Shown here piece by piece: positions 15,622 to 34,741 of a stretch of 64,000 nt of DNA. The stretch is from Actinomycetes bacterium (GTDB taxonomy: Bacteria; Actinomycetota; Thermoleophilia; Solirubrobacterales; 70-9). The DNA is taken from NCBI GenBank assembly GCA_016861045.1, contig BOKP01000001.1, forward strand, positions 375,529 to 439,528, written 5' to 3'. A program made the translations under genes and the position numbers. The notes below the pieces were generated by a model, which had not been told where the DNA came from, searched no databases, and saw nothing but the letters and a program-made list of their open reading frames with translations. Every line of letters begins with the position of its first letter. The stretch's first letter is position 1.

Positions 15622-16665
15622 ATGCGATCCGAGAAGTTGACGATGGCTGTCGTCGGCCTCGGCTACTGGGGCCCGAATCGCCTTCGGGTGATCAACGACC
15701 TTCATGAGGCTGAGGTCGGCTGGATCTGCGACCTGGAGCCGGCACGCCTCGCGCATCACGCGGAGCGAAACCCGCTTGCGCGCGCGACCGCGGACATCGA
15801 TGAGCCTCTTGCTGATCCCGCGGTTGACGCGGTGATCATCGCCACACCCGTGTTCGCTCACGAGGAGCTTGCGACCAAGGCGCTGGAGGCGGGCAAGCAC
15901 GTCTTCGTGGAGAAGCCGCTGGCCGCATCGTGCTCCCAGGCCGCCGGCCTCGTCGAGCTCGCCGAGCGGCGTGATCTCGTGCTGGCGTGCGGCCACACCT
16001 TTCTGCACAGCCCCCCGGTGCAGGCGGCGAAGGCGATGATCGATGCCGGCGATCTCGGCGCGATCCACTACGTCTCATCGAGCCGCGTCAACCTCGGCCC
16101 CTATCGCAGCGATGTCAGCGCGATCTTCGACCTCGGGCCGCACGACTTCTCGATCCTCCGCTACTGGATCGAGCGTAACCCGGCGACGGTCAGCGCGATC
16201 GGGCTCGACGCGATCTCACCGGGGGTAGCCGACGTCGCCTTCGTCCATCTCGACTTCCGCGACGACTTGATCGCCCATGTCGAGTTGAGCTGGCTGGCGC
16301 CGAGCAAGCTTCGCCGGACGGTAATCATCGGAAGCGAGAAGATGCTGGTCTACGAGGACGGCAGTCCGGAGCCATTGCGCCTCTATGACAGCGGGATCGA
16401 GTATCGGGATCCGGAGACGTTCGGTGAGTACCAGCTCTCATACCGCACAGGGGACATCGTGTCGCTGCGGGTCGAGGCGACCGAGCCTATCGCCGCCGAG
16501 CTCCGCGACTTCACCGGTTCGGTGATCGACGGGCATCAGCCACTCGCCAACGGCGAAGTCGCCGTCGATGTCCTACGCACCGTCGAAGCCGCTGAGGCGT
16601 CGATGACCAGGGATGGAGAGGTCGTGCGGGTAGAAGCGTCGCAGGTCGGAGATCCGGCTCGGTGA
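15622..16665 (+). CDS. Gfo/Idh/MocA-family NAD-dependent sugar oxidoreductase (WlbA/WbpB-like)
   Basis: The 347-residue protein has an N-terminal Rossmann fold (AVVGLGYWGPNRLRV, residues about 9-23), the catalytic EKPLA motif with Lys98 and the DLGPHDFSIL motif. These are typical of Gfo/Idh/MocA dehydrogenases. Relatives WlbA/WbpB oxidise UDP-N-acetylglucosaminuronic acid at C3. With the aminotransferase at 20973 and the acetyltransferase at 18178, it suggests synthesis of an acetamido sugar nucleotide. The substrate is inferred from context. It is the first gene of the polysaccharide locus, and its stop overlaps the next GTG (GTGA). Confidence 0.87.
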   Translation: MRSEKLTMAVVGLGYWGPNRLRVINDLHEAEVGWICDLEPARLAHHAERNPLARATADIDEPLADPAVDAVIIATPVFAHEELATKALEAGKHVFVEKPLAASCSQAAGLVELAERRDLVLACGHTFLHSPPVQAAKAMIDAGDLGAIHYVSSSRVNLGPYRSDVSAIFDLGPHDFSILRYWIERNPATVSAIGLDAISPGVADVAFVHLDFRDDLIAHVELSWLAPSKLRRTVIIGSEKMLVYEDGSPEPLRLYDSGIEYRDPETFGEYQLSYRTGDIVSLRVEATEPIAAELRDFTGSVIDGHQPLANGEVAVDVLRTVEAAEASMTRDGEVVRVEASQVGDPAR

Positions 16666-18185
16666 GCGGAGACGACTCACCCTCAGTGCCACATTGTTCC
16701 GACGGGCGCGATCAGGGTCGATACCGTCACGCCGCCGCGGAGCTCACGCTCGCCGATCCGTTCCAGGCTGAGGCGCTGGTCTCGAGTGCTCGGCCACGGC
16801 GGGACTCGCTTACCCGCTGGGCGTTGTTGGTCTCCGACCTCCTATCGATCGAGATCGCCCTTCTCGTTGCGGGCCTGGCGGCGAGCGAGAGGCCGGAGCC
16901 GATGGATCTTGCGCTCTACGGGCTAGCGATGCTTCCCGTCTGGGCGTTGCTGTTCAAGGTCTACGGCCTGTATGACCGCGATATCAAGCGAATCAGCCAC
17001 GCCGGCATCGACGACATTCCCGCGGCCTTCCATGCGTTGATCGTCGGGACCCTAGCCTTCTGGTACATCATGAAGGTCGCACCGTCGGAGCAGATGCTCT
17101 TCGCGGAGGTGGCGGGATTCGCGATCGTGTCCCTACCCCTGATCCTCGCCATGCGGGCGCTGACCCGGCGTGCGGTTCTCGCTGCGCTGGGGGGCGAGAA
17201 CGTCCTGATCGCGGCCAACGGCATCCGGTGCGAGATCGTTGCGCGAAAGCTGAACGCCCACCCCGAGTACGGACAGCACCCGCAGGCGCTCCTCGTTCCC
17301 GCCGACGGCGGCGCCATCCCCAGGGCCGCTACCCGCATTGCCGAGCCGTGGGTGGGCGGGGCGGCAGAGCTCGGGCGGAGAATCGCCACCGGCCGCTTTG
17401 ATCGGGTCATCGTCGCTCGTGACGACTACCCGGCGGCGGAAGTCCTCTCGATGATCAACCTCTGCCGACGCTACTGCGTCAAGATCGGGGTCATCCCCAG
17501 CGCCACCGATGCCTTCGGTCCGTCGCTCGAGCTGGATGAGATCGAGGGGCTGACGGTCCTTGGCGTCACCCCACCCGTCTTGAGCCGCACCTCCCGGATC
17601 CTCAAGCGCGGCTTCGACCTCGCCGTGGCGGTGCCGATCCTGGTACTGACGTCGCCGGTCATGGCGGCGGCGGCGATCGCGATCCGATTCGACTCCCCCG
17701 GTCCCGCCCTGTTTCGGCAGGCCCGGGTGGGTCACCGCTCCAAGGTCTTCACCCTGTTGAAGCTCAGAACGATGGTGGATGGCGCCGACAGGCAGCGCGC
17801 CGAGTTGATGAAGGAGAGCAAGGACCCGAACTGGTTGCACCTCCGGGACGACCCGCGGATTACCAGGGTCGGTTCGTTCCTGCGCCGCATTAGCGTCGAT
17901 GAGCTGCCACAGCTGATCAATGTCATTCGCGGCGAGATGAGCCTCGTCGGCCCACGGCCGCTGCCGGAGTCGGAGGACGCCAACGTCAAGGGCTGGGATC
18001 GTGGCCGGCTCGACCTGGTACCGGGCATCACCGGCCTGTGGCAGGTGCTCGGGCGGACGTCGATCCCCTTTCAGGAGATGGTCAAGCTTGACTACGTCTA
18101 TGTAGCCAATTGGACCCTCTGGATGGACATGAGGCTGCTGATGCGAACCCTGCCGGCGATGCTGCGGCGGCGCGGGGTCAACTGA
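16662..18185 (+). CDS. Polyprenyl glycosylphosphotransferase (initiating sugar transferase)
   Basis: The 507-residue membrane protein transfers a sugar phosphate to undecaprenyl phosphate, the first step of a lipid-linked repeat unit. It has four N-terminal membrane segments (about residues 45-180), a middle nucleotide-binding-like domain and the C-terminal catalytic domain from about residue 310. That domain reads KRGFDLAVAVPILVLTSP, PALFRQARVGHRSKVFTLLK, RVGSFLRRISVDELPQL, GEMSLVGPRPLP and PGITGLWQVLGR. This is the WbaP/WcaJ/CpsE architecture. GTG start overlapping the upstream stop. Its 3' end overlaps the convergent acetyltransferase gene by 8 nt. Confidence 0.95.
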   Translation: MSGDDSPSVPHCSDGRDQGRYRHAAAELTLADPFQAEALVSSARPRRDSLTRWALLVSDLLSIEIALLVAGLAASERPEPMDLALYGLAMLPVWALLFKVYGLYDRDIKRISHAGIDDIPAAFHALIVGTLAFWYIMKVAPSEQMLFAEVAGFAIVSLPLILAMRALTRRAVLAALGGENVLIAANGIRCEIVARKLNAHPEYGQHPQALLVPADGGAIPRAATRIAEPWVGGAAELGRRIATGRFDRVIVARDDYPAAEVLSMINLCRRYCVKIGVIPSATDAFGPSLELDEIEGLTVLGVTPPVLSRTSRILKRGFDLAVAVPILVLTSPVMAAAAIAIRFDSPGPALFRQARVGHRSKVFTLLKLRTMVDGADRQRAELMKESKDPNWLHLRDDPRITRVGSFLRRISVDELPQLINVIRGEMSLVGPRPLPESEDANVKGWDRGRLDLVPGITGLWQVLGRTSIPFQEMVKLDYVYVANWTLWMDMRLLMRTLPAMLRRRGVN

Positions 18186-18678
18186 GCTGGCGGCCCGTGG
18201 AGGCTCTCGCCGGGACTCCGACCACGGTCGCTTCCGCCTCAACGTCGCGGGTGACGACCGCGCCGGCGCCGACGAGCGCGCCGGCGCCGATGGTGACGCC
18301 TCCCAAGATCACTGCCGCCGAGCCGATCGTGGCGCCATCCTCGACGTCGATCGGCAACAGCGTCCAGTCGTTGGAGCTCGCAAGCTCCCCATCGCTGTTG
18401 GTGGCCCGCGGGAGCTTGTCGTTGACGAACATCACCCCATGGCCGATGAAGACCCCGTCACCGATCGTGACCCCGTCGCAGATGAATGTGTGGCTCTGGA
18501 TCTTGCATCGTCTTCCAATCACCGCGCCAGTCTGGATCTCGACGAAGGTGCCGATGCGCGAGCCGGCGCCGACCGCGCATCCGTAGAGGTTCGTGAACGG
18601 GTGGACAACGACATCGGCGCCGAACCGGCACTCACGGATCATGCGATGAGGGGCCTCGTTGGCCGGGGATCCCTGCAT
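18178..18678 (-). CDS. Hexapeptide-repeat N-acetyltransferase (WlbB/WbpD-like)
   Basis: The 166-residue product is a left-handed beta-helix acyltransferase with repeated [LIV]-G-x4 hexads: GAGSRIGTFVEIQTGAVIG, CDGVTIGDGVFIGHGV, DGATIGSAAVILGGVTIGAGALVGAGAVV. The loop FVNDKLPRATNSDG is typical of sugar-nucleotide acetyltransferases of the WbbJ/WlbB group. Together with the Gfo/Idh and DegT enzymes it would complete an acetamido sugar. It is on the opposite strand to its partners. A second ATG at residue 13 is an alternative start. A candidate -10, TATCCT (18689-18694, minus strand), lies 10 nt upstream of the first ATG. Confidence 0.9.
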   Translation of the reverse strand: MQGSPANEAPHRMIRECRFGADVVVHPFTNLYGCAVGAGSRIGTFVEIQTGAVIGRRCKIQSHTFICDGVTIGDGVFIGHGVMFVNDKLPRATNSDGELASSNDWTLLPIDVEDGATIGSAAVILGGVTIGAGALVGAGAVVTRDVEAEATVVGVPARASTGRQLS

Positions 18679-19940: not shown

Positions 19941-20980
19941 GGGTCTGGATCGACATGGCCAACTCCCCGCATCCGCTGCTGTTCGCCCCGGTGGCGAGGC
20001 GTCTGGTTGAGCAAGGGGCCGAGGTGCTCATCACCGTACGGAATCACGCGCAGACGCTCGAGCTGACGCGCCAGCGCTGGCCCGAGGCCGAGATCCTCGG
20101 GGCTCCGGGCCGAGACGGCAGACTGGGAAAGCTCGGCTCGTTGGCACGCCGGGTCGCGGAATGCCGGACTTGGGCCCGACGTCGCCGCCCCCATGTTGCG
20201 CTGTCCCACAACTCCTACGCGCAGATCGTCGCCGCTCGCTTGGTTGGCGTGCCGGTGGTCACCGGGATGGACTACGAGCACCAGCCAATGAACCACCTCG
20301 CCTTTCGCGGTGCAAGCCGGATCCTCGTCCCGGAGGCCGTTCCGGCTGGTGTGATTCGGAGGCAGGGAGCAACCGGAGCCAAGACCATCCGCTACCCGGG
20401 TCTCAAGGAGGAGCTCTACCTGGCCGACTTCGAGCCGGACCCGGGGGTCCTCGATGTCGTCGGAGTATCGCGTCAGGCGGGAGAGGCGGTCGTGGTGGTG
20501 CGCTCCGCTCCCGTCGGCTCCGCCTATCACCCCGACGAGAACCCCCGCTTCGTGGACGGGTTGCGGTACCTCGCTGCGCAGCAGCACGTCCGCTGCGTTG
20601 TCCTTGCCCGGCATGAGAGCCAGCGACAGGAGATCGAAGGGCTCGACCTGCCCAACTGCGTAATCCCCAAGAGGGCTGTGGACGGCCGCTCGCTGCTGTG
20701 CGCCGCGGATCTCTTCATCGGTGCGGGCGGCACGATGTGTCGCGAGGCGGCGCTGCTCGGCGTGCCGACGCTGAGCATGTTCGCCGGCCGCCCCGCCGCC
20801 GTGGATGGCTGGCTCGAGCGCCAAGGTCGGATGGCCCGTTTCGAGCGTCCCGATCAACTCGACCGGGTACGTCCGCGAGCTAATCGGGCCGCCGATCTCG
20901 CGCGCTTGCGAAGTGCCGCCGAGCCGATCCAGCGTGTGTTCATCGAGGCGACAGCAGCCGCGGGCGCGCTCGATGGATGA
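19937..20980 (+). CDS. DUF354-type glycosyltransferase-like protein
   Basis: The frame is open from 19685, but the GTG at 19937 (GTGA overlap with the upstream stop) gives the expected start, MRVWIDMANSPHPLLFAPVARRL. This is characteristic of the DUF354 family, a GT-B-like group found in archaeal and bacterial polysaccharide loci. The 347-residue protein has two Rossmann-like halves; the second contains GAGGTMCREAALLGVPTLSMF, which matches the nucleotide-sugar binding loop of GT-B enzymes. Donor and acceptor are unknown. Confidence 0.87.
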   Translation: MRVWIDMANSPHPLLFAPVARRLVEQGAEVLITVRNHAQTLELTRQRWPEAEILGAPGRDGRLGKLGSLARRVAECRTWARRRRPHVALSHNSYAQIVAARLVGVPVVTGMDYEHQPMNHLAFRGASRILVPEAVPAGVIRRQGATGAKTIRYPGLKEELYLADFEPDPGVLDVVGVSRQAGEAVVVVRSAPVGSAYHPDENPRFVDGLRYLAAQQHVRCVVLARHESQRQEIEGLDLPNCVIPKRAVDGRSLLCAADLFIGAGGTMCREAALLGVPTLSMFAGRPAAVDGWLERQGRMARFERPDQLDRVRPRANRAADLARLRSAAEPIQRVFIEATAAAGALDG

Positions 20981-22088
20981 TCGCGTAGTTCCATTCGTCG
21001 ATCTCGGCCGCACGCACGACGCGATCAACGGCGACATCCTCGACGCCATCGAGGCGGTGGTCGATAGCGGAGACTTCATCCTCGGCTCCGCCGTCGAACG
21101 GTTCGAGCGGGCGTTTGCCTCGTTCGTGGGGGTCGGCCATGGCACCGGCGTGGGATCCGGAACGGCCGCGCTGACGGTCGCTACCCTCGCCACCGGCATC
21201 GAGGCCGGCCAGGAGGTGATCGTTCCCGCGCACACCTACATCGCGACTGCGCTAGGCGTGATGCACGCAGGTGCGGTACCCGTTTTTTGCGAGGTCGATT
21301 CCGTGACCGGATTGATCGACCTCGATTCCGCGGCCGCCGCAGTCGGGGGCCGAACCGCGGCGGTCGTCCCGGTTCATCTCTACGGCCAGGCCTGCCCGAT
21401 GGACGAGGTGGCGGCTTTCGCCGAGCGTCACGGGTTGGTCGTGATCGAGGACGCCGCACAGGCCCATGGCGCGAGTTGGCGAGGCGCTAAGGCGGGCTCA
21501 TTCGGGCACGCGGCTGCCTTCAGCTTCTACCCGTCCAAGAACCTCGGCGCCCTCGGTGACGGTGGCATCGTGCTGACCGACGACGAGGAGGTCGCCGCTG
21601 CCGCCCGGCGGTGGCGGAACCTCGGCCAGCGCGCCAAGGGCGAGCACGTCGAGGCCGGGTTCAACACTCGCCTCGACACCTTGCAGGCAGCGGCTCTGAG
21701 CATCAAGCTCCGGTATCTGGATGGGTGGAATGCCAGCCGTCGCGAGGCATCGACGATCTATCGCGAGCGTCTCGGGGGCGTCGTGGGGGTGCTTCCACGG
21801 CGGCCCGGTGCCGACGACGTCTGGCACCTGTTCCCGGTGCTCGTTGCAGATCGCGATCGCGTGGCCGAGCGGATGAGGGGGCGAGGTATCGGGGTTGGCC
21901 TGCACTACACGCCCGCCGTCCACATGCAGCCGCCGTTCGGCGGGCAGGATCGGGCTGGTGAGTTCCCGGTGGCGGAGGCCTGGGCCGCGCGTGAGCTGTC
22001 CCTACCGATGTTCCCCGGGATCACGCGTTCGGAGGTCGAGCGAGCAGCGGACGCTCTGCTCGAGTCCGTCGGTGATGCGGGGCGGTGA
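20973..22088 (+). CDS. DegT/DnrJ/EryC1/StrS-family sugar aminotransferase
   Basis: A PLP-dependent aminotransferase that would aminate a keto-sugar nucleotide, here probably the product of the 15622 dehydrogenase. The ATG at 20973 overlaps the previous gene by 8 nt and gives 371 aa. Motifs: GSGTAALTVA, PAHTYIATALGV, EDAAQAHGASW and the PLP lysine in FSFYPSKNLGALGDGG (Lys189). The C-terminal GIGVGLHYTPAVHMQPPF is typical of the WbpE/WlbC/ArnB group. It is the last gene of the forward block and faces the 22378 gene. Confidence 0.94.
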   Translation: MDDRVVPFVDLGRTHDAINGDILDAIEAVVDSGDFILGSAVERFERAFASFVGVGHGTGVGSGTAALTVATLATGIEAGQEVIVPAHTYIATALGVMHAGAVPVFCEVDSVTGLIDLDSAAAAVGGRTAAVVPVHLYGQACPMDEVAAFAERHGLVVIEDAAQAHGASWRGAKAGSFGHAAAFSFYPSKNLGALGDGGIVLTDDEEVAAAARRWRNLGQRAKGEHVEAGFNTRLDTLQAAALSIKLRYLDGWNASRREASTIYRERLGGVVGVLPRRPGADDVWHLFPVLVADRDRVAERMRGRGIGVGLHYTPAVHMQPPFGGQDRAGEFPVAEAWAARELSLPMFPGITRSEVERAADALLESVGDAGR

Positions 22089-22377: not shown

Positions 22378-24879
22378 CTACTCCAGCAGGCGGATTTCGT
22401 AGATCGTTGCCCGCCCGCGGTCGATGCCGGTGATCCAGATCAGAAAGTAGCGATGCGGTTCGCCCGCATTCAGGTCGACGATCTGCCTCCCCCGAGACAC
22501 GAGCTCGCGGGTCAGCGGGGGACCCCACGCGGGCAGGTCCGCCGGAGGGGTGTCGAGGTTCCAGCCGTGGATCTCGTAGGTCCGGCCACCACCGCCGGTT
22601 CGGAGCTGCATCCGGCTCGGGGTGACGGGCTTACCGGCATCGACGTAGATCCCAACGCCGTCCTTTGGGATCCCGTCGAGCCCCGCGTAGTAGTCCTCGG
22701 TGCTCCAAGCGGTGTTCGGATCGCCGTCGATCGCCATGCTCGTATCGGCGGCGTGCTCATCGCCGTCCCCACCTGAGCTCGCCGGATCGAAGTCGGTCGC
22801 CGAGTTGAGCGCGATCGACTTCCCGTCCTCGCTCCTCGAGGGTTCTCGCTCGGTGCGACCCCGACCTCCGTGGCTCGCGCCTTCAATGTCGAGGAAGGTC
22901 GCCATCGGGTTGAGCTCCTGTGCCCTTCGAAGTGCCGCCCGGGCCGCACTCGCTCTGCCGAGCAGGGCCCGCTGCCGGCTGAGCACCCACCAAGTCTCCC
23001 AGTTGGTCGGCTCCGCATCCGTGGCGGCATGGGCCACGGCCGTCGCCGCGGCGGGATTGCCAAGTCGCTCATAGGCGAACGCCTGCTGGACAAGCGGGGT
23101 GGCCGCATACGGCTGCAGGCCCGTGGCTTCCTTCGCCCGTGACAGCGACTCGTTGAAATCCCCGGCTCGGAACGCTGCCTGGCTCTCGGCAACGATCCTC
23201 GATCCGTACATCGGAATCGCGGTCACGGCGATGGCTGCGGCGGCGACGATCGTCGCGATGCCGGCGACTGCGATCCGGGTGGCCCTCGAGCCAATCGGCG
23301 CGGGTCGTTCGTCGCCAGCCCGGACGATCGCCGCCGCGATCCACAGGAACGCGATCGGGATCACCGCGATCTCCCAGAGCCAGTCGATCCCCGCCGCGAT
23401 CGTGAACGCGAGTGCCGACGCGGTCGCGGCGGCCATTGCCTGGCGCTCACGGCCTTCGACCAGGAAGGACCTGCGCACGCCCGTGACGAGGGCGAGCAGG
23501 ACGAATCCGCCGATCAGCGTCAGGCCGACGATCCCGAGCTCCCCGAGGACCTCGGCGAACAGCGAGTGCGCGTCGCGGATGAAGCCGGGGATCTCCTTGT
23601 GCTGGCTCCAGAAGTAGACGAACGTGCCCGGCCCGATGCCGTGGATCGGCTCGCTCGTGAACGCCTCGACCGCCCCGGACCAATACTGCCAACGGCCGTT
23701 GCCGCTCGCGCTCGAGAGCCGGTCGGCCTGTGCGCCCGGATGGTCTGGCTGTTTGAAGGTCTCCCAGTCCTCACTCAGACGTTGGGGGCCACCCCCAAGG
23801 AGAAAGCCCAAGATCGCGATTCCCATCGCGATCGCCGCCGCGCCGACAGCGACGCGGCGGGACACCGCGGGCATCTCGGGAAGCCTGCCCCGCCGAACGG
23901 CCCAGCCGATCCCGGCGATCAGCACGCCCACCACCACGCCCCCCCCGATGACCGCCACGAGCATCTGATCGCCTTCTGCCAAAGCGGTCTGATCGACGAG
24001 CCCGGATCGCAGGGAGGGACGTTGCTCAGCCGCCCAGATCAGGCCCGCGCTCGCGACCGCGAGAACGCTCAGCGTCGGGATGAGGGACAGCCGTCGCTCC
24101 GACAGCGCCACGAGCGCGACCACTCCGACGAAGCATGCGATGATTCCGCCGCGCGAGAACGTGTAGTAGGCCGTTAGAGCCATCATCGGAGCCAGGGCCG
24201 CCGCACCGCCGCGGACCGGAAGGGAACGTGCCGTGACCGACAGCCAGACGATCAGCGGCAACCCGACCGCGGTCAGGCCGGCGAGGGCGTTCCAGTAGTT
24301 GAGTGGGTAGGCAAGCCGGCTCTGCGTCGTGGGCAACGCGTCGGCTATCCGAACTTCCGGGAACCAGTTCGGCTCCAGTCGCGACAGCAGCGCAACGGTC
24401 GCGATCGCTGCGCAGCCCGTTCCGACGCCGGCCAGCATCGGCCGGAGCCGATCGCGACCGGCAATCAGCATCGCGAGGAGGAAGATCCCGAGGTAGGACG
24501 CCACGCGGCCAGCCTCGATCATCGTCTGCTCGGCGCTGCTCGACCAAGCCAGTGCTGTGATCGTCCATACCACGAACCCGGCGAGAAGCGTGGTCGCGAT
24601 CCATCCGGTTCGCCCTATTCGGACCGCTGGGTTGATCCCCGCGATCAGCCCGAGCAGGGCGATCCACCAAGCCGCGATCCCGACCTGGCCGCGGACCAGG
24701 GTGTCGAACCCGCCGCTCTCCATCCCCAGGTACACGACGACCGCAAACGGCACCAGAAAGCGTGCTGCCGCCCCCGGTTCGGGAGTATTCCGAAGACGCC
24801 GACGCCCGCCGTGGTCGGTTGGCTTCCCGCGGCTGGAGTCAGGCGCCATGAGGTCGCGCGTCGGCTGCCGCACCCGCAC
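22378..24879 (-). CDS. Wzy/O-antigen-ligase-like membrane protein fused to TPR and discoidin-like domains
   Basis: Numbered from the GTG at 24879, the product is 833 aa. Residues about 40-530 hold roughly a dozen membrane segments and the Wzy_C (O-antigen ligase) region with AYYTFSRGGIIACFVG and the loop EPIHGIGPGTFVYFW ... RDAHSLFAEVLGELG. Residues about 567-659 are TPR-like helices (RAGDFNESLSRAKEATGLQP, AYERLGNPAAATAVA). Residues about 690-833 form a discoidin/F5-8-like domain (MAIDGDPNTAWSTEDYY, KDGVGIYVDAGKPV) like that at the end of actinobacterial MviN proteins. It would polymerise or ligate glycan at the outer face of the membrane, with the tail probably extracellular. The start is uncertain: the frame is open to GTG 24948 and an ATG exists at 24849. 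GTG 24879 is 7 nt from a TATCCT box. Confidence 0.88.
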   Translation of the reverse strand: MRVRQPTRDLMAPDSSRGKPTDHGGRRRLRNTPEPGAAARFLVPFAVVVYLGMESGGFDTLVRGQVGIAAWWIALLGLIAGINPAVRIGRTGWIATTLLAGFVVWTITALAWSSSAEQTMIEAGRVASYLGIFLLAMLIAGRDRLRPMLAGVGTGCAAIATVALLSRLEPNWFPEVRIADALPTTQSRLAYPLNYWNALAGLTAVGLPLIVWLSVTARSLPVRGGAAALAPMMALTAYYTFSRGGIIACFVGVVALVALSERRLSLIPTLSVLAVASAGLIWAAEQRPSLRSGLVDQTALAEGDQMLVAVIGGGVVVGVLIAGIGWAVRRGRLPEMPAVSRRVAVGAAAIAMGIAILGFLLGGGPQRLSEDWETFKQPDHPGAQADRLSSASGNGRWQYWSGAVEAFTSEPIHGIGPGTFVYFWSQHKEIPGFIRDAHSLFAEVLGELGIVGLTLIGGFVLLALVTGVRRSFLVEGRERQAMAAATASALAFTIAAGIDWLWEIAVIPIAFLWIAAAIVRAGDERPAPIGSRATRIAVAGIATIVAAAAIAVTAIPMYGSRIVAESQAAFRAGDFNESLSRAKEATGLQPYAATPLVQQAFAYERLGNPAAATAVAHAATDAEPTNWETWWVLSRQRALLGRASAARAALRRAQELNPMATFLDIEGASHGGRGRTEREPSRSEDGKSIALNSATDFDPASSGGDGDEHAADTSMAIDGDPNTAWSTEDYYAGLDGIPKDGVGIYVDAGKPVTPSRMQLRTGGGGRTYEIHGWNLDTPPADLPAWGPPLTRELVSRGRQIVDLNAGEPHRYFLIWITGIDRGRATIYEIRLLE

Positions 24880-24886
24880 CGATGGG

Positions 24887-24924
24887 AGGATAGGGGTTGG
24901 CTCCGGGCGAGTCGATGTTAGACT
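24887..24924. promoter_or_regulatory. Overlapping divergent promoters
   Basis: On the plus strand, TTGGCT (24897-24902), 16 nt and TAGACT (24919-24924) form a sigma70-like promoter for the 25017 gene. On the minus strand, TATCCT (24892-24887) lies 7 nt before the GTG at 24879, suggesting a leaderless transcript for the Wzy-like gene. The two signals interleave, so the genes may compete for polymerase. Confidence 0.5.
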
Positions 24925-25016
24925 CGCCGTGGACCTGTCATGTCGCACGGCGGGGAAAGCGACCCTCCTCTGCCGCGATCCAGCGAGACACCTGAGAGCG
25001 CCAGGGACGCCCCATC

Positions 25017-25636: not shown

Positions 25637-27241
25637 ATGTTCACCCACGCCTGCGAGGGTGCATCAGACCGGATGAGAACGTCCTCGATGTCATCCGTGA
25701 GTGACGTGTCCGGCGCCCGTAGGCATCAGGTTCTCTCAGGCCTGTTGGCGCTTGCCGTTCTCTGCGCCGCATGGCTGGCACTCGCACAACGGGCGAGCGC
25801 CGCTCGAGACCTCGACGTCGGGTTCGCGGACTATCTCTATGGCTCGATCAACGAGCAGGAGCGGGATCTCTGGCTCGACCGCACGGTGGACGCGAACGCG
25901 GATATCGTGCGTGTCAACCTCTACTGGAGTTCGGTGGCGACGAGCAAGCCGTCAGCCCCGCGAGATCCCAGCGATCCCGCTTACAACTTCCAAATGATCG
26001 ACAACGCCGTCCGTGGTGCCGAGGCGCGCGGTCTGGATGTGGAGTTGACGGTACTCAGCGCTCCGCCGTGGGCGGAGGGAGGGGGGCGGCCGCGCAAGGC
26101 CGAGCCCGGCACCTGGAAGCCGGACCCGCGTGCTTACGGTGACTTCGCCCACGCGGTCGCGGTCCGGTATTCGGGCGCCTTCCCTGCCGCGAGCCCGGCG
26201 CCCTTGCCCGTGGTCGAGTACTACCAGGCCTGGAACGAGACGAACCTGGACACCTATCTCGCGCCGCAGTGGAAAGGGAAGCGAAACAGATCCGCGGACA
26301 TCTACGTACCGCTTCTGAACGAGTTCCATGATGAGGTCAAGGCGGTTAATCCGGAGGCCGAGGTCGTCGCGGCCGGAACCGCGCCTTATGGTGATCCGCC
26401 GGGGGGGCCGAGGCGAACTCAACCCCTGCGCTTCTTCCAGGAGATGCTCTGCCTCGACCGGCGGAACAGGCGGGGGAAGTGCCCGAAGGGGGGTAAGCCG
26501 AAGGCGGACATCTTCGCCCATCATCCGATCAATCGCGAGGACCCGCCACGCGAGAAGGCCGATTTCAAGGGCGATGTGGAGATCGCCGACGTCCATCTGC
26601 TGGCCGAGGCGGTCCGCAAGGCCGAGAAGCTGAACACCATCGCTACTCCCGGAAAGCACCCGCTCTGGGCCGACGAGGTGTGGTGGCAGACGGATCCACC
26701 CGATCGCAAGGAAGGGATCACGCTCGAGAAGCATGCCCGATGGACTGCCGAGGGACTCTATCTGCTGTGGAAGCAAGGCGTTTCGAAGGTGATCTTCCTG
26801 CAGTTCCGCGATGCGGAGTACCGGCGCGGTGAGCATGCTCTGGCCAGCTATCAGACCGGGGTCTACACCTACGGCGGCGAGAAGAAGCCCAGCTACGATG
26901 CCGTCAGATTCCCGTTCGTCACCGAGCGAGAGGGCAGCGGCAACAAGCTCCGCGCATGGGGGGTCGCGCCGGAGTCGGGCGAGTTGATCATCGAGGCCAA
27001 ACGAGGGCGAGGCGGCTATCAGCAGGTCGGCGCGAAGCGGGTGAGCGAGGGCAAGGTGTTCACCGACCGGCTGCGCGCACCCGGTGGCCGGCTGAAGCTT
27101 CGGGCAACGGTCGGCGGCGAGCGAAGCTCGGTTTGGGTCCAAGGGAAGGCAGGGAAGCGAAACCGGAAGGCCGGAAGGCGCGGGGCGCGCCATGAGAGGC
27201 ACCGGGGGCACCACGGGCACGAGGGGCATCGGAGCCGGTAG
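25637..27241 (+). CDS. Secreted glycosidase-like protein (GH39/GH5-like, clan A)
   Basis: The 534-residue product has an N-terminal signal or anchor helix (about residues 33-55, LSGLLALAVLCAAWLALAQ) and a (beta/alpha)8 clan-A catalytic domain. The putative acid/base is Glu201 in QAWNETN and the putative nucleophile is Glu347 in LWADEVWW, with NLYWSSV and FAHHPIN in between. The last 30 residues are Arg/His/Gly-rich (RHERHRGHHGHEGHRSR), an unusual tail. It probably acts outside the membrane on the polysaccharide made by the locus, but the bond cut is unknown. Start ATG 25637; a second ATG at residue 13 is possible. Confidence 0.85.
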   Translation: MFTHACEGASDRMRTSSMSSVSDVSGARRHQVLSGLLALAVLCAAWLALAQRASAARDLDVGFADYLYGSINEQERDLWLDRTVDANADIVRVNLYWSSVATSKPSAPRDPSDPAYNFQMIDNAVRGAEARGLDVELTVLSAPPWAEGGGRPRKAEPGTWKPDPRAYGDFAHAVAVRYSGAFPAASPAPLPVVEYYQAWNETNLDTYLAPQWKGKRNRSADIYVPLLNEFHDEVKAVNPEAEVVAAGTAPYGDPPGGPRRTQPLRFFQEMLCLDRRNRRGKCPKGGKPKADIFAHHPINREDPPREKADFKGDVEIADVHLLAEAVRKAEKLNTIATPGKHPLWADEVWWQTDPPDRKEGITLEKHARWTAEGLYLLWKQGVSKVIFLQFRDAEYRRGEHALASYQTGVYTYGGEKKPSYDAVRFPFVTEREGSGNKLRAWGVAPESGELIIEAKRGRGGYQQVGAKRVSEGKVFTDRLRAPGGRLKLRATVGGERSSVWVQGKAGKRNRKAGRRGARHERHRGHHGHEGHRSR

Positions 27242-27256
27242 CGGACGTCTCGGCCG

Positions 27257-28228
27257 GTGCGGCAGACCCGAGCAACTCGATCCCTGGATCTGATCGTCGT
27301 CCATCACTCCGATGCTGCTTCGACCCGTGAATGCGTCGCGTATGAGCTCGCGCAGCTGAGCCGGCTGGAGGCGGTCGGCCCGGCGCGGGTGACAGTCGTC
27401 GACAACGGCCCTACGGGAGAGCTGGACAACCTCGAGCAGAGCGGGGGCGTGGTGGTTCTTCCAGCTCCTTGCCGCCAGGGGTTCGGGGCGAACGCGACGT
27501 TGGCGGCTCGCGCCTCGCCCGCCGAGTTGCTGCTGTTGCTCAATGACGATGCCCGGATCGACGCCGCCTCCATCGACGCCCTCGTCACCGTCCTCGACGA
27601 TCCCGGGGTCGCCGCTGCCGGGCCGCGGATCGTCGACGGGGAGGGCAGCCCCGCCCCGTCCGCATGGCGCTTCCCTAGCTTGACCGGCGTGATCGCTTTC
27701 GCTCTCAGGCGGAACGGCCCTCCATGGATTCAGTCTCGAGTCGAGGTGACGACGCCGGTCGACGTACTCAGTGGGGCCGCGCTGCTCGTTCGTCGGGGGA
27801 CGTTCGTCGATGAGCTCGACGGGTTCGACCCTGAGTTCTTCATGTTCAGCGAGGATGCCGATCTTTGCCGGCGCCTTGCCGATCGCGGCCTGCGGCGTCT
27901 CCTCGTCCCCGCCGCGACGGCGAGTCACATCGGTCAGGCGTCGACCGCAGGACACGAGCGTCGCCGCGATGTGGAGCAGTGGCGCAGTCGCTCGACCTAC
28001 TGGCGCAAGCATCATTCGGCGCTGGAACGAGTCGCGATCCGCGGTGTCTACGCCGTCGCCTACGCGGTCGGTGCGCTGACCGCGCTGGTTCGGGAGCCGG
28101 CGAGGCGGTCGGCGCGCGATCGGAGCCGGCGCCTCTGGTTCCTGACGGCCGCCGCGCTGCGAACTCCCCCGGGCCCGGGCCTCGCTGAACTGGCCGCCGA
28201 TTGGCGTCCCGATCGTCTACGGCGGTGA
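27257..28228 (+). CDS. Family 2 glycosyltransferase
   Basis: The 323-residue protein (GTG start) is a GT-A fold inverting glycosyltransferase of the rhamnosyl/galactofuranosyl-like group. DLIVVHHSDAAST is near the N-terminus, the DxD-type LLLLNDDARID is at about residues 94-104, and the acceptor region is VDVLSGAALLVRRGTFVDELDGFDPEFFMFSEDADLCRRL. A C-terminal amphipathic or hydrophobic stretch may contact the membrane. It would add one sugar to the lipid-linked unit. It lies 15 nt after the glycosidase gene. Confidence 0.93.
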   Translation: MRQTRATRSLDLIVVHHSDAASTRECVAYELAQLSRLEAVGPARVTVVDNGPTGELDNLEQSGGVVVLPAPCRQGFGANATLAARASPAELLLLLNDDARIDAASIDALVTVLDDPGVAAAGPRIVDGEGSPAPSAWRFPSLTGVIAFALRRNGPPWIQSRVEVTTPVDVLSGAALLVRRGTFVDELDGFDPEFFMFSEDADLCRRLADRGLRRLLVPAATASHIGQASTAGHERRRDVEQWRSRSTYWRKHHSALERVAIRGVYAVAYAVGALTALVREPARRSARDRSRRLWFLTAAALRTPPGPGLAELAADWRPDRLRR

Positions 28229-28418: not shown

Positions 28419-30653
28419 TTGCTAGCCTCGATCGTGGGGTGGTTTCGGGTCCGGCTTCTTGCTGAGATTTTCGGACGGCGCGTCGTGAGAAGCCATCGTG
28501 GCCGCGCTTGGCGCGCCGGCGGGGGCTGTCTGACGTTTGCCGTGCTGATGGCGGTGGCGCCGGCCGCCGCTGCTTCACCGGACCTCGGAGTAGTCTCGAG
28601 GCTTCCCCTCTCCGATGTCGAGCTCGCACGGATGGATGCCGCCGGAGTCGACGTGCTGAGGGTGCCGCTAAGCTGGTCTCGGATCGCCTCGGACTCCGGG
28701 AGTCGCTTTCATTGGCGCCGCGTCGACGATACCGTTCTCGGCGCCGTCGATCATGGCATCGAGGTCATTCCCTACTTGGATGTCCGTCGCTGGCTACGGG
28801 TGGCGCCGGCGGAGAGCGCTCGGGATCTTCGACGGCGCGGATCGAACGCTCGGCCGGGCCTTTGGGAGTGGAAGCGGTTCGTGTCCCACGCGATGTCCCG
28901 CTACGGCACCAGGGGAAGGGTCTGGGGGAACCGTGGCGGCGATGTGGCAACTCCGATCGCGATTACGACTTGGGAGGTGCGGATGGGTCCCGGGTCCTCC
29001 GGCGGTCCGGCGCACCTCCCCGGGACGGAGCTCCGGGGCTACGCGCGGCTGCTTGGGATGGCGGGCCATGCCGCCAGGAGGATCGATCGGGGGGCCGAGG
29101 TCGCCGCCAGCGTCACCGTGGCCCAGTCGCGACGGCGAGGCCCCGGAGCATCCACCCTCGATCGCCTGGTAGCGACGAAGGCGGGCAAGTTCATCGATAC
29201 CGTGACCGTTCGCCCGCCGGCCAGAGCGGGACCTCGGCTGAGCCGTGGGATCGCCCGCGTTCGGCGAAGCCTCGACCGTGGTGGGCTCGACGACGCGAGC
29301 ATCGTGATCGCTCCGATCGGCTGGTCATCCGGCAGCCGTCCGCGGCGGCGGTGGGCCGGTCGGCAGGGGCAGGCCGATCACCTCCGTCGCAGCGTCAAGA
29401 GGATCGATCGCAGCGCCTCCGCCTGGGGGGCCGAGACGGTCATCTGGTCGGCGTGGCGGGATCGGCCCGGCCGAGGTTGCCGCTGGTGCCGGAGATCGGG
29501 CCTGCTCGACCGCACCGGCAAGGTCAAGCCGAGCTTCCGCGCTTTCAAGCGGCTCGCGGAGCAGGATCACGTGGCGGGCGAGGTTCCGGGCGGAGCGTTC
29601 TACGGTGTGACGCCCGACGGCGAGTTGACGGAGGCGGACATCCTAACGATGGACGAGTCCGGCGTCGATGTCGTGCGGCTGGTGATCTCCTGGCCGGGGT
29701 TGCAACCAGGAGGATCGGGCCCGATCGATTGGCGGGGCCTCGACCACCGGGTCGGGTCGCTGGCGGAGCGGGGAGCAGCGGTGCTCCCGCAGCTCATCGG
29801 CTCGCCTGGCCGAGAAGGCCCTCCGACCGCCGGTGAGCTCCCTGAGTGGGCCAGGTTCGTCCATGCCGCTGTTGCCAGGTACGGTGCGGGCGGCACCTTC
29901 TGGCAGGGTTTCTCGGCTGAGCATCCGGACCTCGCGCCGCGTCCCCCGGAGGTCTGGCAGGTGTGGAACGAGCAGAACAACCGTCGGTTCTGGAATCCGG
30001 AGCCATCACCCGAGGCGTACGCGAAGCTCCTTCATGCAAGCGCCGCCGCGATCCGGGCCGCGGACCCACGTGCTGAGGTGATGCTCGGCGGCATGTATGA
30101 GTACGCGGCAGGGATGTCCGCCACCGTGTTCCTCCGGGAGCTTTACGCGATTTCCGGAGCGGGGGACGATTTCGACATTGCGGCCGTCCATCCCTATGCG
30201 CGTGGAAACGCCGGGATCGCCTCCCAGATCGAGGAGGTGAGGGATCTGTTGAACCTGTTCGGTGAACATGGCAAAGACATCTGGATCACCGAGCTCGGGT
30301 GGTCTTCGGTTCCGATCGATGAGTCTGCTGGAGGCGTCTACGCGGAGCTCTCCAGGGACGAAGCCGGCCAGGCGGAGGCGTTGGAGGCCGCTTACGAGAT
30401 GCTCCACGCCAACCGCTCGCGATGGCGGCTGCGGGGGGTTGTCTGGTATTCCTGGCGCGATGCGGCCGAGCCGGTCTGCATCTTCTGTCAGCACACGGGG
30501 CTGCTCCGGATCGACGGCTCGCCGAAGCCTTCGCTGGCGGCGTTCGCCGGGCTGGCGTTGAGTGCCGCCCCCCATGAGGTACCGATTGACCTCGACGCTG
30601 GGCCGATCCGGGTAATGGCCACAACGCCGGAGCCACCCGGGAGCTGCCGCTAA
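28419..30653 (+). CDS. Secreted tandem glycosidase-like protein, first repeat catalytically degenerate
   Basis: The 744-residue product (from TTG 28419) has a hydrophobic signal segment (about residues 36-53) and two homologous (beta/alpha)8 repeats, about 55-380 and 392-712. In repeat 2 the clan-A residues are intact: acid/base Glu518 in WQVWNEQNN and nucleophile Glu625 in WITELGWSS. In repeat 1 the equivalent places read TTWEVRMG and VIAPIGWSS, so the nucleophile is Pro299 and the acid/base motif is gone. Both repeats end alike: IWSAWRDRPG ... KVKPSFRAFKRLA versus VWYSWRDAAE ... SPKPSLAAFAGLA. The first repeat may bind rather than cut glycan. A GTG at 28434, 5 nt after a TAGCCT box, is an alternative start. 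Confidence 0.87.
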   Translation: MLASIVGWFRVRLLAEIFGRRVVRSHRGRAWRAGGGCLTFAVLMAVAPAAAASPDLGVVSRLPLSDVELARMDAAGVDVLRVPLSWSRIASDSGSRFHWRRVDDTVLGAVDHGIEVIPYLDVRRWLRVAPAESARDLRRRGSNARPGLWEWKRFVSHAMSRYGTRGRVWGNRGGDVATPIAITTWEVRMGPGSSGGPAHLPGTELRGYARLLGMAGHAARRIDRGAEVAASVTVAQSRRRGPGASTLDRLVATKAGKFIDTVTVRPPARAGPRLSRGIARVRRSLDRGGLDDASIVIAPIGWSSGSRPRRRWAGRQGQADHLRRSVKRIDRSASAWGAETVIWSAWRDRPGRGCRWCRRSGLLDRTGKVKPSFRAFKRLAEQDHVAGEVPGGAFYGVTPDGELTEADILTMDESGVDVVRLVISWPGLQPGGSGPIDWRGLDHRVGSLAERGAAVLPQLIGSPGREGPPTAGELPEWARFVHAAVARYGAGGTFWQGFSAEHPDLAPRPPEVWQVWNEQNNRRFWNPEPSPEAYAKLLHASAAAIRAADPRAEVMLGGMYEYAAGMSATVFLRELYAISGAGDDFDIAAVHPYARGNAGIASQIEEVRDLLNLFGEHGKDIWITELGWSSVPIDESAGGVYAELSRDEAGQAEALEAAYEMLHANRSRWRLRGVVWYSWRDAAEPVCIFCQHTGLLRIDGSPKPSLAAFAGLALSAAPHEVPIDLDAGPIRVMATTPEPPGSCR

Positions 30654-31860: not shown

Positions 31861-33335
31861 TGCTCCGCCGAATCCTCATCATCGGCGGCAGCGGTGCGGT
31901 CGCAGCCGCGGCTCTGGCGGTCGTTCAGATCCGGGTCGGCTCCCTGTTCGGAACCGGAGCCGAGCTCGACGCGTTCTTCGTCGGTGCCGCCCTGCCTTCG
32001 GTCCTTCTCGCCGTCGGCGCCGGAGCGATCTTCAACATCGTCATCCCCCGGTTGCCGGAGGGGCCCGGCGGCGCAGCCGCGGCCGGCCGGTTCGCAGCGC
32101 TCGCCGCCACGTCGGGCGCCCTCGTCACGGCGGCGATCGCCCTGGCCGCCGCACCGATCGTGGATGTGATCGCTCCGGGGCTCGATGGGGACACGGCTCG
32201 GGAGGCGGCCGCCGTCCTCCGCATCTACGCGATCACGATTCCTCCGACGTGCGTCGCTTTTGTCTTCTCGGGATTCGCCTACTCGATCGACCGCTCCTAC
32301 GTCTCCGGAGCATCCGGCACGTTGTACGCCCTTGCCTGGCTTGGCCTGCTGTTCGTGCCCGCCTTCACCGAGAGCGTTGAGCGCGTAGCAGTAGCCGGCG
32401 TTCTCGCCACGATCGTGCAGGTCACGTCGGCGTTCGCCCTTGCCGCTTCGCCTGGCGCTGTGCCGTGGCCCATTACGCGCAGGCTTCGGATCTCGCAGGC
32501 GGCGATGGCGGCCGCCGCAACGGTGCTCGGGGCGACGTTGCTCAGCCGCGTCGGCCTGCTGCTCGATCCTCTCTTCGGATCACTGTTGGAGGCCGGCTCC
32601 GTTTCTCAGCTCACCTACGCCAGCCGGATCATGCTTCTCGCCGTGTTCATCAGCGGACAGGGGCCGGCCTTCGCGTTGCTCGTCGTCGGCCGTCGGCGGG
32701 ACGACGGCTCGGACGCCGACGCACGAATCGGCGTCGTGGTGCCGCTGCTGCTTTCGCTCGGCGCTGCCGCCGTGTTCGCGATTTGCGGCCCGGGCCTCGC
32801 CCAGCTCCTCCTCGCCCGCGGCGAGCTGACCACGGCCGACGCTCGGGAGATCGGTGAGCTGATGCGGATCTACGCGCCGTCGATCTGCGTGATCGCTCTC
32901 GTCTGGGCGCTCGAGGCCATCCTCTACGCGTCGCAGCGGGCGCGTGAGGTGCTCATGCGCGTGCTCGCCGGGCTGCTGGTCAACATGGTCGCCTCGGCCG
33001 CCTTCGTGGCCCTGCTCGGAGTCGACGGCAGGCCGATCGGAGTCTTCGTGGGGATGAGTGCTCAGCTCGTTCTTCTCCTCGTTCTACTCGGTGGTGACCC
33101 GCGTGTCACCGTGCTGTCCGAACCACGAACGCGTGACTACGCGTTCGGGCTGCTGGTCACCACGGTCGCTGTCACGTCGATCGTTTACCTTGCCTGCGGC
33201 GCGCTCACGTCCCTAAGCATCGCGGGTGTGGTGGCTGCCCTCGTCGCGGCGCTCGTCGTCCTCGTGTTCGTCGTCAGGTACGGCCGCAACGCGGTCGCGC
33301 TCCGGGACGCCGACGTAGGATCGCGTAGCCGATGA
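31857..33335 (+). CDS. MurJ/MviN-like or Wzx-like lipid-linked oligosaccharide flippase
   Basis: The 492-residue protein has about 12-14 membrane helices. It starts like MurJ-family flippases (VVQIRVGSLFGTGAELDAFFVG, AGAIFNIVIPRLPE), with FSGFAYSIDRSY and SQLTYASRIMLLAVFISGQG further on. Since the gene sits among glycosyltransferases and a Wzy-like gene, it most likely flips the undecaprenyl-linked repeat unit rather than lipid II. It overlaps both neighbours by 4 nt, indicating a tight operon. Confidence 0.9.
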   Translation: MMLRRILIIGGSGAVAAAALAVVQIRVGSLFGTGAELDAFFVGAALPSVLLAVGAGAIFNIVIPRLPEGPGGAAAAGRFAALAATSGALVTAAIALAAAPIVDVIAPGLDGDTAREAAAVLRIYAITIPPTCVAFVFSGFAYSIDRSYVSGASGTLYALAWLGLLFVPAFTESVERVAVAGVLATIVQVTSAFALAASPGAVPWPITRRLRISQAAMAAAATVLGATLLSRVGLLLDPLFGSLLEAGSVSQLTYASRIMLLAVFISGQGPAFALLVVGRRRDDGSDADARIGVVVPLLLSLGAAAVFAICGPGLAQLLLARGELTTADAREIGELMRIYAPSICVIALVWALEAILYASQRAREVLMRVLAGLLVNMVASAAFVALLGVDGRPIGVFVGMSAQLVLLLVLLGGDPRVTVLSEPRTRDYAFGLLVTTVAVTSIVYLACGALTSLSIAGVVAALVAALVVLVFVVRYGRNAVALRDADVGSRSR

Positions 33336-34741
33336 ACTCCACCTCAGCCCGGATCGTCCCGCCGGTGGTCGTCGCGGCCCTCGGGGTGCTTCTCGCCGTG
33401 GTTCTGGCTGCCGGCTCGTTCCTGACGACGGGCTCGTCGCTGCCGATCATGGGACTGGGTCTCCTGCTCGTCGTCGTGGCCGGTGCGGTCTACCTCTGGG
33501 GCGCGGAGGCACCTCTGCTCGGGGCGATCGTGATCGTGCCGCTGATCCCGAACACCACCATCGGCTTCGCGGCTGGAGGGCTGGGGGGCCAGTGGGGTGA
33601 GCTCCGTGCCGTCCTGCTCGTACTCCTGCTCGGGGTGTACCTCGCCTGCTTTCCGCGCGGGGTCCCGAGGCTCCCGCGCGTCCTGATCGGTGTGACGGGA
33701 TCGCTCGTCGCTCTCGCCGGGGCGGGGATGTTCGCGGCCGTCACGAACGGAGGGAGCTCTGTCGGGTTCCTCGCGGAAGCAGCGCACGGGGCCGGCCAGC
33801 CGCTGATCTACGCACTCTTGATCGTTGCCGTTGCAGCCGCGCTTCAGAGCCGAGAGGGTGCTCGGGAGCGCCTCCTCGCCGCGGTCTGCATCGCGATCCT
33901 CGGCCAGGCGATCGTCGTGGTGGCCGGGCTCGCCACCGGAGCGGCCTATGACCCGGTTCGGCAGATCACGCGGGCGCAGGGGACCGTCGGCGCCAACTTC
34001 CTCAGCGCGATGGCGATGCTCGGGTTCTTCGCCGGCCTCTCGCTACGGTCGGGATCGACCGCCCGGCGGTTCCGTTCGCTGGGGATCGTGACCGCGGTAG
34101 CGGCGCTCGCCATCATCGCCGTCGCCACGACTCGAGGCGGTCTGGTCGGTGTCTTCATCGGCGTTGCCTACGTGGTCCTAACAGGGGTGGACGCACGGGC
34201 CCGGATCGCGACGGTCGCGGCGCTCGCCGTCTTGATGGTCGCGTTGACGACGATCCCGCAGGTTTCCGGTCTCTGGTCGGAGCGACTCGACTGGCGGGGC
34301 GGGATCACCGACTTCGATCGTGTCGCCACTTGGATCTCGGGAGTCCGGATGGGGCTCGATGATCCGCTCGGCGGACTTGGCAACGCAGGGGTCGCCGAGG
34401 GCGTCGCGGAGGTTTCGCGCTACCAGCAGACCCCGGCGGGCCCGACCAGCGTCGTCCCTCACAACATCTGGATTCTCGCGTTCGCTGAAGCGGGTATCGC
34501 CGGCCTGCTCATGTCGCTCGTCTTCTCGTTCTTCTTCTGCCTCGCGATCTGGCGTCGGCCTCGCCGCCGCAGCCTCCCCGACCGGTTCCTTGTCGGTGGG
34601 CTGCTCGGCCTGATCGCCGTCTCGCTGATCAACAACCTGTTCACCCACCCCGAGGTGATGCTCCCCGGATTCGTCTTCCTCGCCGTCGTCTGCTCCGGGG
34701 CACTCGCCGGGAGGCGGCTCGGCCAACCAGTGGTCTCCTGA
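33332..34741 (+). CDS. Second Wzy/O-antigen-ligase-like membrane protein
   Basis: The 469-residue protein has about 12 membrane helices and the Wzy_C/ligase loop pattern: VATTRGGLVGVFIGVAYVVLTG, then a large outside loop with VRMGLDDPLGGLGNAGVAEG and VPHNIWILAFAEAGIAGLLMSL (His in HNIWI as in ligases). It lacks the TPR and discoidin parts of the 22378 protein. One of the two may polymerise and the other ligate the glycan to the wall. The ATG overlaps the flippase stop by 4 nt. Confidence 0.88.
   Translation: MNSTSARIVPPVVVAALGVLLAVVLAAGSFLTTGSSLPIMGLGLLLVVVAGAVYLWGAEAPLLGAIVIVPLIPNTTIGFAAGGLGGQWGELRAVLLVLLLGVYLACFPRGVPRLPRVLIGVTGSLVALAGAGMFAAVTNGGSSVGFLAEAAHGAGQPLIYALLIVAVAAALQSREGARERLLAAVCIAILGQAIVVVAGLATGAAYDPVRQITRAQGTVGANFLSAMAMLGFFAGLSLRSGSTARRFRSLGIVTAVAALAIIAVATTRGGLVGVFIGVAYVVLTGVDARARIATVAALAVLMVALTTIPQVSGLWSERLDWRGGITDFDRVATWISGVRMGLDDPLGGLGNAGVAEGVAEVSRYQQTPAGPTSVVPHNIWILAFAEAGIAGLLMSLVFSFFFCLAIWRRPRRRSLPDRFLVGGLLGLIAVSLINNLFTHPEVMLPGFVFLAVVCSGALAGRRLGQPVVS

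What the first reader, a model, noticed from the sequence alone, without database searches (positions are those of the whole stretch)
22378..24879. Wzy/ligase-like polymerase fused to TPR and a discoidin-type domain
The membrane polymerase region is followed by TPR-like helices and then by a domain with AIDGDPNTAW, the kind found at the C-terminus of actinobacterial MviN (MurJ homologue) proteins. I know of that domain on the flippase, not on a polymerase. The fusion suggests the domain marks extracytoplasmic glycan-assembly machines and may recognise the growing glycan.
Basis: partly seen in the sequence, partly recalled or inferred. Interest (0 to 1): 0.65.

Follow-up and report, generated by a model that had tools for sequence, protein, structure and literature searches.

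The report
Glycan polymerase wearing a kinase's sensor
In a soil-type actinobacterium, a membrane enzyme that builds surface polysaccharide carries at its end a copy of the outside "feeler" domain of a cell-wall control kinase, a join that arose at least twice, which suggests that sugar-coat building and wall growth may be tied to the same cue.

Summary
Window 22378-24948 (-) is one uninterrupted gene: an O-antigen-ligase/Wzy-type membrane protein (Pfam Wzy_C, E 2.7e-15), TPR helices, and a 167-residue tail. The tail is only a sub-threshold F5/8C Pfam match, but its predicted structure is a clear CBM32/discoidin-like sandwich (Z 15.2). The interpretation needs correcting. The tail does occur on MviN (MurJ plus pseudokinase), but in this order (Solirubrobacterales) its usual carrier is a Ser/Thr kinase. 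In the window's genome that kinase lies beside the PP2C-FtsW/RodA-PbpA-PknB-Ddl wall-synthesis cluster. The window's tail is 56% identical to its own kinase's tail and falls with its genus's kinases (support 100/100). A second, independent Wzy-TPR-tail fusion exists in another genus (G010); its tail DNA is 94% identical to that genome's own kinase tail, and the congener's orthologue lacks it. So the kinase's sensor domain was copied onto Wzy-type enzymes twice. Two fusions were found among 232 genomes of the order. Best reading: the tail brings the enzyme to the same extracytoplasmic ligand, probably a wall glycan, that the kinase reads, coupling polysaccharide assembly to wall growth. Ligand and coupling are inferred, not shown. 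A new variant of a known kind.

The parts
22378..24948 (-). Wzy-type polymerase/ligase-TPR-discoidin fusion gene, 856 aa (alternative starts 24879, 24849)
23218..24777 (-). Multi-spanning membrane core (residues 58-577); positive-inside pattern puts the 385-472 loop and everything after 577 outside
   Evidence: hydropathy and charge per loop
23512..23940 (-). Wzy_C (PF04932) match, residues 337-479; DAHS at 459-462; SRGG lies upstream at 265-268
   Evidence: that these are the usual Arg and His motifs of the superfamily is recalled
22900..23181 (-). TPR region, residues 590-683
22381..22821 (-). Galactose-binding-like (CBM32/discoidin) beta-sandwich, residues 710-856, homologous to the extracytoplasmic domain of the order's Ser/Thr kinase; 22822-22881 is the linker
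22705..22734 (-). AIDGDPNTAW motif, residues 739-748
16662..18185 (+). Neighbour: polyprenyl glycosylphosphotransferase that starts polysaccharide synthesis
   Evidence: TIGR03025 330.9 bits (cut-off 295.6); PF02397
31857..33335 (+). Neighbour: MurJ/Wzx-type flippase without the tail
   Evidence: PF03023 1.1e-25; ORF ends at residue 492
33332..34741 (+). Neighbour: second Wzy_C protein (469 aa), no TPR or tail
   Evidence: PF04932 7.2e-13

Best explanation
The gene encodes an O-antigen-ligase/Wzy-type integral membrane enzyme whose extracytoplasmic C-terminus (TPR helices, linker, CBM32-like sandwich) ends in a copy of the sensor domain of the cell's wall-associated Ser/Thr kinase. Shown: the architecture, the fold prediction, descent from the kinase of the same genus, and a second independent capture in another genus. 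Inferred: the sandwich binds an extracytoplasmic ligand, most likely a cell-wall glycan or precursor, that the kinase also reads. The domain holds the enzyme where that ligand is exposed, so that polysaccharide is polymerised on, or attached to, growing wall in step with kinase signalling.
For: The same genome holds the tail exactly twice, on this gene and on a kinase (PF00069 1.8e-54) at 56% identity. That kinase lies next to a cluster with PP2C, FtsW/RodA, PbpA, PASTA-PknB and Ddl domains. Tail tree: the window tail groups with 3 kinases of its own genus at 100/100, and the G010 Wzy tail with the G010 kinase at 100/99. A single origin of the two Wzy tails is rejected, p-AU 3.3e-16 for tails and 7.5e-5 for Wzy cores. 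G010's two tails share 321 of 342 DNA positions; the orthologue in congener G017 (56% identical) ends without a tail. The window tail keeps 13 of 13 columns that are at least 95% conserved in 50 order kinases, and G010's keeps 11 of the 11 columns it covers. dN/dS of window tail against own kinase tail is 0.32/0.77, a ratio like that between kinases of the genus (0.17/0.39). Fold: Z 15.2, rmsd 2.5 over 129 residues to a chitosan-binding CBM32. Topology puts the tail outside.
Against: No ligand, localisation or activity is known. The fold also serves non-sugar partners: IFT25 and XRCC1 are in the same match list at Z 14.4 and 12.9. The fusion is rare: 2 among 232 genomes of the order. The window tail's branch is about six times longer than that of its sister kinase (0.41 against 0.065), which would fit relaxed constraint or a changed ligand. 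The G010 fusion is cut by a contig end. Whether the core is a polymerase or a ligase cannot be told from sequence.
Confidence: 0.5

Rival explanations
1. Functionless or transient fusion: recombination put the 3' end of the kinase gene behind a Wzy gene, and the extra domain is tolerated but does nothing.
For: Rare in the order; longer branch of the window tail; G010's copy is young (dN 0.040, dS 0.072).
Against: Two independent captures of the same donor domain by the same recipient family. At dS 0.77 the window tail has kept its frame and 13 of 13 conserved columns, with dN/dS about 0.41.
Confidence: 0.22
2. Docking to the kinase: the two like domains pair with each other outside the membrane, so the Wzy protein is regulated by, recruits or titrates the kinase, rather than sharing a ligand with it.
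For: Both copies sit in one cell and stay similar; in G010 they are near-identical, and a kinase whose sensor differs from its congener's is matched by the Wzy tail.
Against: No sign of self-association was tested or seen; CBM32-fold domains are known mainly as single ligand-binding units (recalled).
Confidence: 0.15
3. One reading: a domain of glycan-assembly machines (flippase, polymerase) that recognises the growing polysaccharide itself.
For: MviN and the Wzy fusions both carry it; carbohydrate-binding fold.
Against: Usual carriers are kinases without any glycan-assembly domain; the window copy comes from the kinase; the flippase and second Wzy in the same locus lack it.
Confidence: 0.12

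Closest known systems
Mycobacterium tuberculosis MviN (Rv3910) and its mycobacterial-type relatives
   Same: The C-terminal extracytoplasmic domain is homologous: the tail profile hits residues 1085-1238 of L110, a MurJ + MviN-pseudokinase protein. [quoted passage not shown] PMC12599244 (passages) calls the latter a carbohydrate-binding domain.
   Different: MviN has a MurJ flippase core and a pseudokinase before the domain; the window protein has a Wzy_C core and TPRs and no kinase-like part.
O-antigen ligase / Wzy family with TPR tail (PF04932; weak TIGR03097, 45 bits against a 188 cut-off)
   Same: Membrane core, Wzy_C region and extracytoplasmic TPR. Other relatives end within 0-59 residues after the matched TPR.
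   Different: Extra 167-residue linker and sandwich at the C-terminus, shared only with G010 among the relatives examined.
CBM32 / F5/8 type C (discoidin) domains
   Same: Fold: Z 15.2 to 4zxe, 670 of 993 aligned chains at Z 5 or more.
   Different: Sequence below the Pfam cut-off (14.6 bits against 28.2); 3 of 28 tails reach E 0.1.
PASTA-domain kinases (PknB)
   Same: Same idea of a wall kinase with an outside sensor; a PASTA-PknB gene is in the same cluster.
   Different: The domain transplanted here is the CBM32-like sensor of the neighbouring kinase, not PASTA.

Membership tests
O-antigen ligase/Wzy superfamily (PF04932) | Wzy_C score above the curated cut-off | tested here: met
   56.9 bits against 31.7
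O-antigen ligase/Wzy superfamily (PF04932) | Many membrane helices with a large outside loop before the last ones | tested here: met
   14 hydrophobic peaks, 88-residue loop at 385-472 (simple hydropathy; the full-length single-sequence model was unusable, pLDDT 40.7)
O-antigen ligase/Wzy superfamily (PF04932) | Polymerase or ligase activity | not testable with these tools
   none
F5/8 type C domain (PF00754) | Pfam score above the cut-off | tested here: not met
   14.6 against 28.2 bits
Galactose-binding-like/CBM32 fold | Jelly-roll sandwich structurally similar to CBM32 | tested here: met
   model pLDDT 81.4; Z 15.2, rmsd 2.5, 129 aligned
Galactose-binding-like/CBM32 fold | Carbohydrate binding | not testable with these tools
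   none
MviN (MurJ-pseudokinase-CBM) | MurJ core | tested here: not met
   no PF03023 match to the window protein
MviN (MurJ-pseudokinase-CBM) | Homologous C-terminal extracytoplasmic domain | tested here: met
   tail profile built from A1 hits MurJ-pseudokinase-length ORFs at E 2.4e-21 to 3.6e-19 (L110, L111, L112, L116, L117); the MurJ and pseudokinase parts were checked on L110

The most novel reading that the evidence does not exclude
The sandwich is an exchangeable reading head shared in matched pairs: within one cell the wall kinase and a polysaccharide polymerase carry the same version of the domain, so sensing and building are tuned to one lineage-specific glycan. When the kinase's version changes, the polymerase's changes with it, by copying or gene conversion. 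G010 fits: its kinase has 96% catalytic but 48% sensor identity to its congener's kinase, yet a near-identical sensor to its own Wzy protein.
Probability: 0.2. Interest if true: 0.75.

Novelty: new variant of a known kind. Interest (0 to 1): 0.5.

Why it matters
It gives a natural experiment on what the MviN-type extracytoplasmic domain does. No source I could read states its ligand. Evolution has twice moved it from a wall kinase to a polysaccharide polymerase/ligase, so the ligand should be something both need to find. Measuring that ligand on a soluble ~150-residue domain is straightforward and could show how actinobacteria coordinate wall growth with surface polysaccharide.

Tried and rejected
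Frameshift or chimeric gene: rejected by the continuous frame and codon-position GC. Chance motif: rejected by 222 of 232 genomes. Direct descent from a flippase: rejected by the tail tree. One ancestral Wzy fusion: rejected.

Full-length structure from the single sequence was worthless (pLDDT 40.7) and not used. NCBIfam gives no name to the tail. PDB sequence search with the tail profile gives only weak hits (best E 0.019), so the fold claim rests on the predicted structure. The first genome-contig scan (P0001) found nothing. Search for a contig that continues the G010 repeat found only the two contig ends. A first parse of kinase pairs kept only 11 kinases and was replaced by one with 63. 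The primary MviN paper (Gee et al. 2012) is not held.

Literature searches for a Wzy/ligase with this domain found nothing on it in their listings: 1 paper; 7 papers; 3; 10 listed of 61; 8 listed of 323. I read no text of those papers, so absence in print is not shown.

Full report
WHAT IS THERE. The gene at 22378-24948 (-) has an unbroken 856-codon frame with high third-position GC throughout. Pfam finds Wzy_C above its cut-off (E 2.7e-15) and TPR matches below theirs; designed TPR chains match residues 591-683. Hydropathy and charges per loop give a multi-spanning core. The 88-residue loop 385-472 falls outside; the two short basic loops at 492-502 and 543-558 fall inside. The last helix (559-577) therefore delivers TPRs and tail to the outside. 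SRGG and DAHS motifs are present; their link to the catalytic Arg and His of the superfamily is recalled, not tested.

THE TAIL IS A CBM32/DISCOIDIN-LIKE SANDWICH. Pfam gives only a sub-threshold F5_F8_type_C match (14.6 bits against 28.2), and phmmer a weak hit to a CBM32 (2v72, E 0.026). An AlphaFold2 model on 18 sequences (window plus 17 from named genomes) has pLDDT 81.4. Foldseek's top hits are CBM32s (E 1.5e-6). VIA-align gives Z 15.2, rmsd 2.5 over 129 residues to chitosan-binding module 4zxe. The fold alone does not prove sugar binding: IFT25 and XRCC1 are in the same list.

WHERE ELSE IT OCCURS. In the window's genome the tail profile matches twice: on this gene and, at 56% identity, at the end of a 492-aa Ser/Thr kinase. 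On the opposite strand next to that kinase lies a run of genes with PP2C, FtsW/RodA, PbpA-type transpeptidase, PASTA-kinase (4 PASTA matches) and D-Ala-D-Ala ligase domains. In the order, 222 of 232 genomes have the tail (112 of 112 good-quality ones). In the window's family, 47 of 50 genomes match (family size): 45 with one copy and two (G000, G010) with two. The named relatives are Solirubrobacterales/Thermoleophilaceae; the closest match is Conexibacter sp. QR_Bin.2. Of the tail-bearing ORFs in the order whose frame was long enough (689 aa or more in the lists) to hold a Wzy-TPR-tail, each one read was a kinase or a zinc-ribbon protein except the window's and G010's. Search lists are cut at about 150 rows, so this covers listed matches; 73 two- or three-copy genomes and 64 further genomes were listed separately.

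OTHER CARRIERS. Active-type kinases with HRDxKPxN, one membrane helix, then the tail; kinase-like proteins without that motif; zinc-ribbon one-helix proteins in family f2 (12 read: L083-L085, L099-L106, L186); and MurJ-pseudokinase proteins of about 1230-1500-aa frames in family f32 (8 frames read: L110, L111, L112, L116, L117; L193-L195, by length and tail only). L110 matches PF03023 at 1.3e-117 and the pseudokinase structure 3oun at 9.6e-127, which PMC10166564 (passages) identifies as M. tuberculosis MviN's. In the phylum sample 168 of 396 genomes have the tail.

TWO INDEPENDENT CAPTURES. G010 (same family, another genus) encodes a Wzy_C (2.9e-15)-TPR protein whose frame runs into the same tail and off the contig end at 810 aa. 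Its tail DNA is identical to that genome's own kinase tail at 321 of 342 positions. Both contigs stop in the tail with the last 99 bases identical, as expected where an assembler breaks at a repeat; no third contig carries that stretch. The upstream differences, including an in-frame 6-base gap, show two real copies. The congener G017 has the orthologous Wzy (56% over query residues 49-697, 690-aa frame) ending 16 residues after the TPR match. In a tree of 93 tails, the window tail sits with the three kinases of its genus (100/100) and the G010 Wzy tail with the G010 kinase (100/99) (the bootstrap had not fully settled). Forcing the two Wzy tails together is rejected (p-AU 3.3e-16); forcing the two Wzy cores together is also rejected (7.5e-5, quick tree of 40 cores). 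Among the 41 Wzy rows (two of them the window itself), C-terminal extensions after the match are 0-59 aa except the window (166) and G010 (122). P0001 searches over the order (232 genomes) and class (399 genomes) list no further match that covers the tail without reading through stops; both lists are cut and score only the best candidates of each genome.

IS THE TAIL KEPT BY SELECTION? Window against own kinase: dN 0.32, dS 0.77; kinases of the genus against each other: dN 0.12-0.17, dS 0.38-0.39; G010 pair: 0.040/0.072 (NG86). The window tail keeps 13 of 13 columns conserved at 95% or more in 50 kinases of the order; MurJ tails keep 8-9 and zinc-ribbon tails 5-9 of them. Against this, the window tail's end branch is 0.41 against about 0.065 for its sister kinase, so it has evolved faster.

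SURROUNDINGS. The gene lies in a polysaccharide locus: a glycosylphosphotransferase (16662-18185), a Gfo/Idh-type dehydrogenase (15622-16665), a hexapeptide acetyltransferase (18178-18678), a PseC-like aminotransferase (20805-22088; below PseC's cut-off), glycosyltransferases (27257-28228, 30724-31860), a MurJ/Wzx-type flippase (31857-33335) and a second Wzy_C protein (33332-34741). Since the locus has its own flippase-Wzy pair without tails, the fusion protein may be the ligase that hands the finished polymer to an acceptor; this is inference.

HOW IT MOST LIKELY WORKS. The shared domain binds an extracytoplasmic ligand, probably a wall glycan, given the fold, the kinase's gene neighbourhood, and its use in MviN, whose extra domains regulate peptidoglycan synthesis (PMC10166564, passages; PMC12599244 calls the domain carbohydrate-binding, passages). 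On the kinase it would report that ligand; on the Wzy-type enzyme it would hold the active site where the ligand is exposed, so that coat and wall grow together. Rivals: a tolerated by-product of recombination, or docking between the two like domains.

A FURTHER HINT. Between G010 and G017 the kinases are 96% identical around the catalytic loop but 48% in the sensor (99 aligned residues), the lowest sensor identity among 48 kinase pairs with at least 88% catalytic identity; the next is G005/G015, 93% and 49%. G010's Wzy carries the same version as its kinase. This is the basis of the bolder matched-pair reading; it rests on one case and on draft genomes.

Noticed in passing
L083-L085, L099-L106, L186: In family f2 genomes the second tail copy sits on proteins with a CxxC...CxxC zinc-ribbon-like pair, one membrane helix and a proline-rich linker; the 11 in the tail tree form one clade (100/100). 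Function unknown.
   Followed up: partly
L081 against L089; L021 against L178: Kinase sensors differ strongly between congeners (48-49% identity) while the catalytic parts are 93-96% identical, as if the sensor were replaced or very fast evolving.
   Followed up: partly
L082:1456-10054: The tail kinase lies opposite ddl beside PP2C, FtsW/RodA, PbpA and PASTA-PknB genes, a place that recalls PknA beside PknB in mycobacteria (recalled).
   Followed up: partly
25637-27241 and 28419-30653 (+): Two proteins with weak to moderate cellulase (GH5)-type matches lie beside the fusion gene; the second seems to hold two barrel-like halves.
   Followed up: no
[quoted passage not shown] whether these belong to ActPs3 was not tested.
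   Followed up: no
L002, L003, L005: The window's genome has at least three more Wzy-TPR paralogues (30-44% identical), without the tail by the search rows.
   Followed up: partly
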